Assembly: GCA_900079685.1 (NCBI GenBank)
Contig: LT599018.1
Coordinates: 2,473,625 to 2,537,624, forward strand
Direction of reading: 5' to 3'
DNA: 64,000 nt
Source: an uncultured delta proteobacterium
Lineage (GTDB): Bacteria; Desulfobacterota; Desulfovibrionia; Desulfovibrionales; Desulfovibrionaceae
How positions within the stretch are numbered: the first letter of the stretch is position 1; each line of letters opens with the position of its first letter. The translations under genes were made by a program, and so were the position numbers. The notes beneath the pieces are model-generated. The model did no database searches. It saw nothing but the letters and a program-made list of their open reading frames with translations, and had not been told where the DNA came from. Below, piece after piece: positions 7,792 through 50,272 of this stretch.

Positions 7792-7920
7792 GAGCTTGTT
7801 GCAGAAACTCCTTTGCCGACAAGCAGCCACACAGGCATACGCGGCATTCATTGCCGCCGGTGCAGCCTGCGTGAGCGCGCCTTTACGAATCCCGGTTTTG
7901 CGGGGTTTGTCATCAGTCTG
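7792..7920 (-). repeat. ~131-bp structured repeat, copy A
   Basis: This is a diverged copy of the repeat at 16025-17510 and 49896-50026, oriented as the 49.9-kb copy. Shared blocks are GGCATTCATTGCCGCC, the GCGGGGTTTGTCATCAGTCTG end and the hairpin GAGCTTGTTG...CGACAAG at the other end. It lies upstream of nrdJ. The flanks are imperfect GC palindromes (about 7775-7790 and 7923-7937) rather than the clear terminators seen at the other two copies. Confidence 0.75.
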
Positions 7921-15972: not shown

Positions 15973-15990
15973 CTCGACGTGCCTCTCAAA

Positions 15991-16024
15991 ACAAAAAAAC
16001 CGCCATGACGGCGGTTTTCTTGTC
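15991..16024. terminator. Terminator, left copy of a 34-bp duplication
   Basis: AAACCGCC pairs with GGCGGTTT around ATGAC and is flanked by A- and T-runs, so it works on both strands. The same 34 bp recur at 17511-17544 with one mismatch. It lies 18 bases past the epimerase stop codon. Confidence 0.85.
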
Positions 16025-16139
16025 CAGTTTGATGACAAACCCCGCAAAGCCGGGTTTTGTAAAGGCACGCTCGCTCCGGCGTTTAACGGCGGGAATGAAT
16101 CCCGCCTACGCCTACGCGGCGGGCCGCTGCCAAAGAGGA
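16025..16139 (+). repeat. ~131-bp structured repeat, copy B (left part)
   Basis: These 115 bases align without gaps to 49912-50026 (other strand) at about 85% identity by eye. The inner stem GGCGGG/CCCGCC has become GGCGGC/GCCGCC in the other copies, a paired change. The last 17 bases of the unit lie at 17494-17510, split off by the IS element. Confidence 0.85.
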
Positions 16140-16141
16140 AT

Positions 16142-16152
16142 ATGGCCCCGCC
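16142..16152 (+). repeat. IS subterminal inverted repeat
   Basis: ATGGCCCCGCC, a perfect inverted match to 17475-17485. Confidence 0.75.
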
Positions 16153-16384
16153 TTGAGGTCAAGAGCTTTCTTTATCGGAATTCAACGAGTTCGGATGCAA
16201 ACGTATATCCGGCGTCGTAAGCGCCTTTATGGGAATCCGCGCTTTCGGTCCTTATCGACTTTGCGGCATCGTTGTGCCTACTCTTTGGTCAGGTTCTCCG
16301 AAAGCAGGTCCGACCGTTTTTTCCATAATTACTGCTCGTGCACCCTCTGGGGAAATTCACATACCCAAGAAAAATAGTTTTTCT
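16153..16384 (-). ncRNA. Candidate bridge-RNA region of the IS
   Basis: IS110-family elements use a structured bridge RNA to pair element and target DNA. In the IS1111 group it is expected downstream of the transposase gene. This 232-bp non-coding stretch is in that place, whereas the other side has only about 75 bases. I have not folded it; the words ACTTTGC and CTCTTTGGTCA resemble pieces of the target hairpin but prove nothing. Confidence 0.35.
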
Positions 16385-17419
16385 TTATTGGGAAAACTCA
16401 AATCGCGAGTTTCTGGTCAGCATGCACCAAGCTATGCGGGCAAGTTTGTTGGCAAGAGCCACAGTCGCCTTGTGCACCCCACGCCGTGAAACGATGTCCG
16501 CAAGCCAGGCGGCAAGTTTACCCTGTCTCACAATCGGATTACCTGCGAGGAAAGAGCGGAGCACTGAACGACTGCAATGGATCAACAGCGTTCGCAGATA
16601 ACAGTCACCACGCTTATGGATGCCCAGAAGTCTGCTTTTGCCGCCACTTGAATGCTGGCGTGGCGTCAGGCCAAGAAAAGCGGCAAAGCTGCGACTTTTC
16701 TTGAAATCCCGCGCTACCCCTTCCAAGGCAAGCAGAGAGGTGGCCGTCAGCAAGCCTATGCCAGGAACGGCACGCAAGCGTTGGCACAGATTATTGTCGG
16801 CGGCCAATTTTTTTAGAGAATCTTCGGATTGTTTGATCTGTTTTTCCAGATGTATGAAGTGCTCGTATTGCATTCCCAAAAGGTTTCGCATCAAGCCGGA
16901 GAGGGCATTTTCTTCATCGCCGAGGACAGCAGGCAACGCCGAGCAAATATTGCGTATTCCCTGCTTCACGGCAATGCCATTATCCAAAAGCAAGGCGCGG
17001 ATCCGGTTGGCCGTGGCTGTACGCTCTTTCACCAAGCCCTGGCGTACGCGGTGAATTGATTGAATATCAGCTTCGCGTTGCGATTTAAGGGCCACAAAGC
17101 GCATATGAGGTCGCTGTGCCGCTTCACAGATCGCGGCAGCGTCATTGGCGTCGTTTTTCCCACCAATACGGAACGGAGCCACATAGCGCGGGTGTATAAT
17201 TTTAACGGTGTGCCCATAGGAAGCGATACATCTCCCCCAATAATGGGATGTGCCACACGCCTCCATGGCAACCACGCAAGCGGGAAGTTTGGCGAAAAAC
17301 TCAGCCAGCGAATCGCGATGGATATTTTTACTTACAACGCATCTGCCATTGGCGTTGACGCCGTATACGCGAAAAATGTTCTTTGCCAGATCAAGACCGA
17401 TAGTGCTAATCGTCTTCAT
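16385..17419 (-). CDS. IS110-family (IS1111 group) transposase
   Basis: This 344-residue DEDD recombinase cuts and joins element and target DNA under RNA guidance. The RuvC-like domain shows D10 (GLDLAKN), E53 (VAMEACG) and D90/D93 (KNDANDAAAICEA). The C-terminal part has the helix-hairpin RLRAVPGIGLLTATSLL and the serine-bearing HSSGGKSRLLGI near residue 257. All catalytic residues are present and there is no frameshift, so it may be active. The ATG at 17419 has AAGGAGG 8 bases upstream; an in-frame TTG at 17437 is less likely. Confidence 0.93.
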   Translation of the reverse strand: MKTISTIGLDLAKNIFRVYGVNANGRCVVSKNIHRDSLAEFFAKLPACVVAMEACGTSHYWGRCIASYGHTVKIIHPRYVAPFRIGGKNDANDAAAICEAAQRPHMRFVALKSQREADIQSIHRVRQGLVKERTATANRIRALLLDNGIAVKQGIRNICSALPAVLGDEENALSGLMRNLLGMQYEHFIHLEKQIKQSEDSLKKLAADNNLCQRLRAVPGIGLLTATSLLALEGVARDFKKSRSFAAFLGLTPRQHSSGGKSRLLGIHKRGDCYLRTLLIHCSRSVLRSFLAGNPIVRQGKLAAWLADIVSRRGVHKATVALANKLARIAWCMLTRNSRFEFSQ

Positions 17420-17474
17420 GGGGTGGCCTCCTTGCAAGGTGTTTGGGTATACCTATGCATGCCCGATTTTTTCG

Positions 17475-17485
17475 GGCGGGGCCAT
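17475..17485 (-). repeat. IS subterminal inverted repeat
   Basis: GGCGGGGCCAT, perfect complement of 16142-16152. A small hairpin (GCCCGATTTTTTCGGGC) overlaps its inner side. Confidence 0.75.
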
Positions 17486-17493
17486 CCCATCAA

Positions 17494-17510
17494 CTTTGTC
17501 AACGGCCTCA
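17494..17510 (+). repeat. ~131-bp structured repeat, copy B (right part)
   Basis: CTTTGTCAACGGCCTCA is the last 17 bases of the repeat split by the IS; the intact copy at 49.9 kb reads CTTTGTCAACAACCTC here. Confidence 0.8.
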
Positions 17511-17544
17511 ACAAAAAAACCGCCATGACGGCGGTTTTTTTGTC
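17511..17544. terminator. Terminator, right copy of a 34-bp duplication
   Basis: Matches 15991-16024 with one difference (a T for a C in the tail). It lies 17 bases past the stop of the minus-strand lipoprotein gene and should end its transcript. Confidence 0.85.
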
Positions 17545-49589: not shown

Positions 49590-49808
49590 ATGGCAAAAGA
49601 AGACGCCATTGAAGTTGACGGCGTTGTGCAGGAAGCCCTGCCCAACGCAATGTTCCGGGTGGACCTGGACAACGGGCACGAGGTGCTCGCGCATATTTCC
49701 GGCAAGATGCGCAAATTTTATATCCGCATTCTCCCCGGCGACCGGGTGAAGGTGGAACTCTCCCCTTACGACCTCACGCGCGGCCGGATCACCTACCGCA
49801 TGAAATAG
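49590..49808 (+). CDS. infA: Translation initiation factor IF-1
   Basis: IF-1 blocks the ribosomal A site at initiation. The 72-residue OB-fold protein reads [20 protein letters not shown], with [20 protein letters not shown] and [13 protein letters not shown], all typical. GGAGG lies 4 bases before the ATG at 49590; the longer frame upstream is not supported. Confidence 0.97.
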
Positions 49809-49830
49809 CGTTTCACGCAGTTCCGCCATG

Positions 49831-49854
49831 CGCCTCCCCGGGAGGCGTTTTTTT
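49831..49854 (+). terminator. infA terminator
   Basis: CGCCTCC pairs with GGAGGCG around CCG, followed by TTTTTTT. It lies 22 bases past the infA stop. Confidence 0.9.
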
Positions 49855-49861
49855 CAATGAA

Positions 49862-49895
49862 GAAGGCCCGGCCCGCAAAAGCGGGCCGGGCCTTC
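49862..49895. terminator. GC hairpin, left copy of a 34-bp duplication
   Basis: GAAGGCCCGGCCCGC pairs with GCGGGCCGGGCCTTC around AAAA. An identical 34-bp copy is at 50027-50060. Confidence 0.8.
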
Positions 49896-50026
49896 GAGGT
49901 TGTTGACAAAGTCCTCTTTGACAACAACCCGCCACGGAGGCGTAGGCGGCATTCATTGCCGCCGTTAAGCGCCGGAGTGGGCGTGCCTTCACAAACCACG
50001 GCTTTGCGGGGTTTGTCGTCAGTCTG
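49896..50026 (-). repeat. ~131-bp structured repeat, copy C (intact)
   Basis: This is the intact reference copy. It starts GAGGTTGTTGACAAAG, with a terminal hairpin GTTGACAAAG/CTTTGACAAC, has the inner stem GGCGGC/GCCGCC around ATTCATT, and ends GTCGTCAGTCTG. It lies between two identical terminator-like hairpins. The IS110-type element in copy B interrupts the equivalent of the terminal hairpin at 49911/49912. Confidence 0.85.
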
Positions 50027-50060
50027 GAAGGCCCGGCCCGCAAAAGCGGGCCGGGCCTTC
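50027..50060. terminator. GC hairpin, right copy of a 34-bp duplication
   Basis: Identical to 49862-49895; it lies 23 bases past the ferredoxin stop codon on the minus strand. Confidence 0.8.
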
Positions 50061-50083: not shown

Positions 50084-50272
50084 TTAGACTTCTTCAACGG
50101 TGATGGCGTCCGAAGGACACACTTCCACACAGGAGTCGCAGCCCAGGCATTCTTCAGCGTTCACGGGAACGGCTTTGCCGCCCTGCATTTCGTACACTTC
50201 AACGGGGCAGATGTCGACACATTCACCGTCGCCGCTGCATTTGTCGGCGTTCACGATTACATTCCAGCTCAT
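50084..50272 (-). CDS. Ferredoxin III-type 7Fe/8Fe ferredoxin
   Basis: This 62-residue electron carrier holds two clusters. The second has a standard CxxCxxC...CP set (C42, C45, C48, C52). In the first set the second Cys is replaced by Asp: C12-x2-D15-x2-C18-x3-C22-P. The same pattern and very similar sequence are known for Desulfovibrio africanus ferredoxin III, whose first cluster switches between [3Fe-4S] and [4Fe-4S] and can take other metals. It stands alone; transcription starts in the 200-bp gap shared with cobT. Confidence 0.95.
   Translation of the reverse strand: MSWNVIVNADKCSGDGECVDICPVEVYEMQGGKAVPVNAEECLGCDSCVEVCPSDAITVEEV

What the first reader, a model, noticed from the sequence alone, without database searches (positions are those of the whole stretch)
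49862..50060. Second terminator-repeat-terminator block downstream of infA
infA already has its own terminator (49831-49854). Beyond it come two identical 34-bp GC hairpins enclosing the intact repeat, and then the ferredoxin gene ends. This copy gives the reference boundaries and the orientation, opposite to copy B. The perfect identity of the two hairpins points to a recent event here.
Basis: seen in the sequence. Interest (0 to 1): 0.5.

Follow-up and report, generated by a model that had tools for sequence, protein, structure and literature searches.

The report
Mini-transposon that duplicates its landing hairpin
A 131-base non-coding mobile element, a stripped-down copy of an IS1182-type jumping gene in the same genome, appears to have landed on a DNA hairpin between two genes and left the whole hairpin duplicated on both sides; relatives in other bacteria do the same, which suggests a transposase that reads the folded shape of its target.

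Summary
In detail: two identical 34-nt hairpins (49862-49895, 50027-50060) enclose a 131-bp repeat with 19 matches in the genome, three in this window. The repeat is a MITE of an IS1182-family insertion sequence that has nine intact copies here with similar ends. Of 15 two-ended MITE copies, 10 lie between duplicated palindromes that differ from locus to locus, so the hairpins are target-site duplications (TSD), not part of the element.

Of 103 transposase loci tested, from several phyla, 56 gave a TSD of 17-40 bp by script; palindrome and TSD centres coincide in 55 of 56. 54 of 56 are at least 80% mirror-paired, against 77 of 112,000 random windows. Empty sites in Aminobacter and Bacillus plasmids hold one palindrome; one Aminobacter terminator was hit in both orientations with the same junctions. 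A same-genus genome has one hairpin and no repeat at this locus.

Inferred mechanism: strand transfer at the 5' feet of an extruded cruciform. Palindrome targeting by this family is in print; Wan 2017 drew whole-stem-loop duplication as a hypothetical pathway. New variant of a known kind.

The parts
49590..49808 (+). infA gene (left neighbour)
   Evidence: Reading frame; 72-aa protein matched in 35 of 35 genomes searched
49830..49848 (+). infA terminator-like hairpin, followed by a T run
   Evidence: Terminator scan; fold -14 kcal/mol
49862..49895 (.). Left copy of the target palindrome (target-site duplication)
   Evidence: 34 of 34 identical to the right copy; 15-bp stem, 4-nt loop
49896..50026 (+). 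MITE, copy C, 131 bp: left terminal hairpin, REP-like middle, right terminal hairpin
   Evidence: 19 matches in the genome; ends compared with those of the full IS
49929..49984 (+). REP-like middle of the MITE (GTAG followed by a hairpin); limits taken from the G016 matches
   Evidence: 22 matches to this part in genome G016; one of them read; the name REP is my reading
50027..50060 (.). Right copy of the target palindrome (target-site duplication)
50084..50272 (-). Ferredoxin-like gene (right neighbour)
   Evidence: Sequence; translation
15990..16024 (-). Copy B: TSD at the MITE's right end, terminator-like with a T run
   Evidence: 35 nt, 1 mismatch to the other copy
16025..16138 (-). Copy B: MITE part after the IS110 insertion
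16139..17493 (-). IS110-family element inserted in the MITE's left end; transposase 16385-17437
   Evidence: NCBIfam NF033542, E 3.7e-98, on the identical protein from L016; limits approximate
17494..17509 (-). Copy B: first 16 nt of the MITE
17510..17544 (-). Copy B: TSD at the MITE's left end
7792..7920 (+). Copy A: old, diverged MITE (79% identity), flanked by non-matching palindrome remnants

Best explanation
The block is an insertion of a 131-bp non-autonomous IS1182-family element (a MITE) into a hairpin-forming palindrome between the convergent infA and ferredoxin genes; the whole 34-bp palindrome was duplicated by the insertion. SHOWN by sequence: the repeat is dispersed; it has ends like those of an intact IS in the same genome; the palindrome differs from locus to locus and is duplicated around most two-ended copies; relatives of the IS have the same habit and their empty sites hold one palindrome. 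INFERRED: the transposase, supplied in trans by the full-length IS, acts when the palindrome is extruded as a cruciform. The two 3' ends of the element attack the 5' foot of each hairpin arm at the four-way junction. These points are 17-40 bp apart in the linear duplex but close together when folded, so gap repair copies the whole palindrome on both sides whatever its length.
For: 10 of 15 two-ended MITE copies in the genome have the same palindrome on both sides, different from locus to locus. 9 intact IS1182 transposase copies; 8 of 11 own IS loci have a palindromic TSD of 21-40 bp by script and an elsewhere missed one, L022, shows it by eye. 56 of 103 loci gave a TSD of 17-40 bp, centres coinciding in 55 of 56; 54 of 56 at least 80% mirror-paired against 77 of 112,000 random windows; 9 of 9 split pairs that I matched within draft genomes have the same palindrome on both halves, one with 1 mismatch. 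Empty sites with one palindrome: 13 of 13 records fetched, 6 of them base-exact over 99-100 bases. One terminator hit in both orientations with the same junctions. More distant relatives (42.7-58.1% identity): 4 of 5 with a duplicated stretch of at least 16 nt of a palindrome.
Against: No reaction was observed; the cruciform is inferred from symmetry and variable length alone. 13 of 103 loci have two different or partial palindromes and 7 more show a diverged duplication or one the script missed; recombination between copies is my explanation for the former and was not tested. 5 of 15 MITE copies do not show the duplication. In 12 of 56 sites the potential stem runs on past the TSD, so the cut is not at the outermost possible foot. 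The MITE's left end matches the IS's left end only in part (GAGGTTGTTGACAAAG against CAGACCCTTGACAAAG). The random-window control uses this window only, not each host's DNA. The same-genus hairpin at this locus differs in sequence. Other family members are listed with 4-bp repeats.
Confidence: 0.72

Rival explanations
1. The hairpins are part of the repeat, and hairpin-repeat-hairpin moves as one unit.
For: The two hairpins are identical here.
Against: The palindrome differs from locus to locus while the repeat stays the same; empty sites of relatives already hold one palindrome.
Confidence: 0.02
2. The transposase reads ordinary duplex DNA or a terminator-bound factor (RNA polymerase, a DNA-binding protein) and makes a wide stagger; cruciform extrusion is not needed.
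For: No biochemistry is available. Many targets look like intrinsic terminators with A tracts before and T tracts after (A 73% in the 5 nt before, T 65% in the 5 nt after).
Against: The stagger varies from 17 to 40 bp and is centred on the palindrome in 55 of 56 cases, which a rigid duplex-binding complex would not easily give.
Confidence: 0.2
3. The hairpins were duplicated by recombination or by copying slippage, unrelated to transposition.
For: Swapped palindromes show that recombination between copies does occur (L003, L026, L030, L203).
Against: The duplication borders the element ends exactly at many unrelated loci, and filled and empty sites differ by the element plus one palindrome.
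Confidence: 0.03
4. The repeat is a REP/RAYT-type element (single-strand transposase) rather than an IS1182 derivative.
For: Its middle is REP-like, and matches to that part alone occur in related genomes.
Against: Its ends resemble those of the IS1182 element in the same genome, and the flanking duplications follow that element's habit. A RAYT gene was not searched for.
Confidence: 0.03

Closest known systems
IS1182 family insertion sequences (NCBIfam NF033551)
   Same: The full-length element's transposase scores 463 bits against a cut-off of 270. Palindrome targeting by some members is reported second-hand in PMC4923244 and PMC5678879 (passages; they cite a 2015 review that I did not see).
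   Different: The listed members ISPse1 and ISCaa15 have 4-bp repeats (table passages of PMC3281130 and PMC3196728); here the repeat is the whole palindrome.
IS1272 / TnSha1 (stem-loop replacement, staphylococci)
   Same: Targets hairpins, including terminators, without sequence preference (PMC4923244, PMC5678879; passages, and part 1 of the Discussion of the latter).
   Different: Reported to delete or replace the stem-loop and to leave no duplication; here the stem-loop is kept and doubled. Its protein is far from ours (about 25% identity over half the length).
Pathway b of the model in Wan et al. 2017 (PMC5678879, Fig. 13 legend)
   Different: There it is a hypothetical branch not assigned to IS1272; here natural insertions with that outcome are shown.
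QMITE2 of Coxiella burnetii (review PMC10969869, passages)
   Same: A MITE with a GTAG REP that serves as a landing site for IS1111.
   Different: Here the IS110-family element sits in the MITE's left terminal hairpin, not in the GTAG unit.

Membership tests
IS1182 family (the full-length parent element) | IS1182-type transposase | tested here: met
   NF033551, E 1e-138, 463 bits against a cut-off of 270
IS1182 family (the full-length parent element) | DDE transposase domain | tested here: met
   PF13751, PF05598 and PF01609 above their cut-offs
IS1182 family (the full-length parent element) | Terminal inverted repeats | tested here: met
   CAGACCCTTGACAAAG... and, reverse-complemented, CAGACCTCTGACAAAC...
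MITE of this IS | Short, no transposase gene, several copies | tested here: met
   131 bp, 19 matches, some of them fragments
MITE of this IS | Terminal repeats shared with an autonomous element in the same genome | tested here: met
   Right end clear, left end partial
MITE of this IS | Same kind of target duplication as the autonomous element | tested here: met
   10 of 15 two-ended MITE copies; 8 of 11 own IS loci by script
MITE of this IS | Mobilised in trans by that transposase | not testable with these tools
   Needs an experiment
IS1272-type stem-loop replacement | Target stem-loop removed and no TSD | tested here: not met
   Stem-loop kept and duplicated; empty sites hold one copy
REP element mobilised by RAYT | GTAG plus hairpin | tested here: met
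   Only the middle of the MITE; the motif is recalled
REP element mobilised by RAYT | RAYT gene in the genome | not tested
   No search was made
Intrinsic terminator (the two 34-nt hairpins) | G+C-rich hairpin followed by a T run | tested here: not met
   Hairpin present; no T run, not called on either strand

The most novel reading that the evidence does not exclude
A broad clade of IS1182-type DDE transposases, spread over several phyla, chooses its target by folded DNA structure: it integrates across the two 5' feet of an extruded cruciform, so the length of the target duplication (17-40 bp seen) is set by the target's stem-loop and not by the transposase. MITEs riding on that activity double hairpins across a genome.
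Probability: 0.6. Interest if true: 0.75.

Novelty: new variant of a known kind. Interest (0 to 1): 0.55.

Why it matters
DDE transposases as a rule make target duplications of a set length (established knowledge, recalled). A natural system in which the duplication equals the target palindrome, whatever its length, gives a direct handle on structure-directed integration and may record which palindromes fold in living cells. It also offers a target rule that tends to spare genes (8 of the 11 annotated plasmid loci lie between convergent genes) and explains a kind of double hairpin that genome readers meet without explanation.

Tried and rejected
Rfam at gathering thresholds found only a tRNA in the window, so the repeat matches no curated RNA family at that threshold; ARAGORN found the same tRNA. 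The PDB sequence search gave no credible relative of the transposase (best E 0.095). The predicted structure was too weak (mean pLDDT 62.4, pTM 0.54), so no fold search was run. 'The hairpins belong to the repeat' was dropped after comparing loci. 'The element inside copy B is what moves the repeat' was dropped: it is an IS110-family element sitting in the MITE.

Literature: ten searches of an open-access library; in their listings and in the passages I opened I saw no description of whole-palindrome TSD as a rule for IS1182 elements. The library lacks most subscription journals and ISfinder, the listings were capped, and I recall, unchecked, that ISfinder gives this family repeats of 0-60 bp, so curators may well have seen it. 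Seen: passages of PMC4923244, PMC3281130, PMC12056078, PMC3119063, PMC3196728, PMC10383233 and PMC10969869; passages and part 1 of 2 of the Discussion of PMC5678879. Other papers only in search listings.

Full report
WHAT IS THERE. At 49862-50060 the window reads: palindrome (34 nt), 131-bp repeat, the same palindrome again (34 of 34 identical), between infA (+) with its own terminator-like hairpin and a ferredoxin-like gene (-). The palindrome is a perfect 15-bp stem with a 4-nt loop. The terminator scan does not call it on either strand, for want of a T run.

THE REPEAT IS A MITE. It matches 19 places in genome G000 (4.0 Mb, 3 contigs), three of them in this window. Laying out the flanks showed palindromes at the ends of most full-length copies, the same on both sides of a copy but different from copy to copy. 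Of 15 copies with both ends, 10 show the duplication (L001, L002, L005, L008, L009, L011, L012, L013, L014, L016). Five do not: L003 and L007 have two different palindromes; L004, L006 and L015 have palindrome remnants that do not match. The other four matches (L010, L017, L018, L019) are fragments. L005, L013, L014 and L016 were judged by eye: three are interrupted by an IS110-family element, and L013 has an extra stretch with an N at its right end. L016 is a composite of the MITE's left part and an IS1182 copy.

THE PARENT. Copy L016 runs into a 485-aa IS1182-family transposase. The genome has nine copies identical in protein and two interrupted ones. Their ends are CAGACCCTTGACAAAGTC... and ...GGGTTTGTCAGAGGTCTG; the MITE's right end matches well, its left end in part. 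By script 8 of these 11 loci have palindromic TSDs of 21-40 bp; L026 and L030 have swapped palindromes, and the composite L022 was not recognised by the script but shows a duplication by eye. Among 58 other genomes searched, 6 had any match to the transposase, at best 70% over 144 residues, and the only same-genus genome had none; so the element looks recently acquired, with the caveat that this genome is 74% complete. That genome does carry one match to the MITE's first 94 bases at 81%, so the MITE or a forebear may be older.

GENERALITY. A scan of named genomes kept the best 80 of 432 loci. With 12 plasmid loci and 11 own loci, 103 went through one script: 56 gave a TSD of 17-40 bp, 2 had no recognisable ends (L022, L049), 45 had ends but no TSD. 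Of these 45, 18 are split contig halves that I paired within draft genomes; all 9 pairs match, one with 1 mismatch. Seven show a duplication in other calls or a diverged one (L040, L052, L060, L078, L107, L184, L185). Seven are cut by contig ends (L034, L042, L061, L069, L071, L090, L109). Thirteen have two different or partial palindromes, or another IS on one side (L026, L030, L054, L059, L064, L065, L067, L076, L092, L093, L095, L098, L112). The loci with a TSD include Pseudomonadota, Lentisphaera, an Acidobacteriaceae MAG, a Desulfuromonadales MAG and Bacillus.

CONTROL. In the 56, palindrome and TSD centres coincide in 55 and differ by half a base in 1. In 54 of 56 at least 80% of the mirror positions pair, against 77 of 112,000 random windows of the same lengths drawn from this 64-kb window; the exceptions are L053 (half-base shift) and L106 (6 of 8). 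More distant relatives in Bacilli plasmids (42.7-58.1% identity) show palindromes too: 4 of 5 have a duplicated stretch of at least 16 nt, one (L206) has two different palindromes.

EMPTY SITES. In Aminobacter plasmids the kynU-ABC terminator is filled in strain SR38 and empty in four others: three agree with the predicted empty site at 100 of 100 bases, one at 99 of 100. In A. niigataensis DMFA1 the same terminator is filled in the opposite orientation with the same junctions. A Bacillus subtilis plasmid site has four empty records, 99 of 99 (three) and 97 of 99 (one). The NyZ550 site has four empty records with one palindrome, ungapped 103, 99, 75 and 70 of 105, the two low values through a one-base shift in an A tract. 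A Rhizobium site has one empty record, 62 of 99 ungapped, with a one-base change in the loop (all). At the finding's own locus the same-genus genome has one hairpin and no repeat, but that hairpin's sequence differs.

HOW IT WORKS. Two points of attack 17-40 bp apart on linear DNA, symmetrical about a palindrome, are most simply explained if the palindrome is extruded and both points lie at the foot of the cruciform. Wan et al. 2017 (PMC5678879; passages and part 1 of the Discussion) drew this outcome as pathway b while assigning IS1272 to a branch that removes the stem-loop. The TSD edge tends to lie just outside the G+C core: first base A in 45 of 56, last base T in 44 of 56; edge within -1 to 3 nt of the outermost G.C pair in 44 of 56, where TSD length and that span correlate at 0.94 (0.61 over all 56). 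In the other 12 the potential stem runs on past the TSD, which fits only if the junction sits at the G+C core. Cruciform, strand transfer at the feet and supply of the transposase in trans are inferences; no reaction was observed.

GENE CONTEXT. Of the 12 plasmid loci, 11 have annotation; in 8 of these 11 the IS lies between convergent genes (L175, L179-L184, L186), in 3 it does not (L176, L177, L178) (the gene tables are incomplete). The finding's copy also lies between convergent genes.

WHAT IS KNOWN. Palindrome targeting in the IS1182 family is in print (PMC4923244 and PMC5678879, both citing a 2015 review not seen here). IS1272 leaves no duplication; ISPse1 and ISCaa15 are listed with 4 bp. 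I saw no statement of the whole-palindrome rule in ten searches, which is no proof of absence.

VERDICT. Observation confirmed: a MITE with a whole-hairpin target duplication, a new variant of a known kind. The single copy is ordinary; the rule behind it deserves attention.

Noticed in passing
window 16139-17493 (-); L200-L203: All 4 of 4 copies of a 350-aa IS110-family transposase in this genome begin at the same point of the MITE's left end; in three the rest of the MITE follows, in L203 an IS1182 end with an N between. NCBIfam calls the family RNA-guided, so the MITE end looks like its programmed landing site.
   Followed up: partly
L003, L026, L030, L203: Palindromes are swapped between copies (the same one left of L003 and L030, another right of L003 and left of L203, a third left of L026 and right of L030), as if element copies had recombined. 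An N at the L026/L203 junction leaves an assembly fault possible.
   Followed up: partly
window 49929-49984; L116, L119-L130 (G016): The MITE's middle is REP-like and matches 22 places in another genome of the family without the MITE's ends: a MITE that seems to carry a REP unit.
   Followed up: partly
L007 and L012: Two MITE copies on different contigs share 1101 bp of identical left flank: a segmental duplication, recombination or an assembly fault.
   Followed up: no
L020 / L022 (G000:C1:1868000-1876000): A composite: MITE left part with the IS110 element inside, fused to an IS1182 copy that lacks its first bases, the whole between one duplicated palindrome.
   Followed up: partly
L040: The palindromes at the two ends are reverse complements of each other (loop inverted), as if the site or the element had flipped after insertion.
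   Followed up: no
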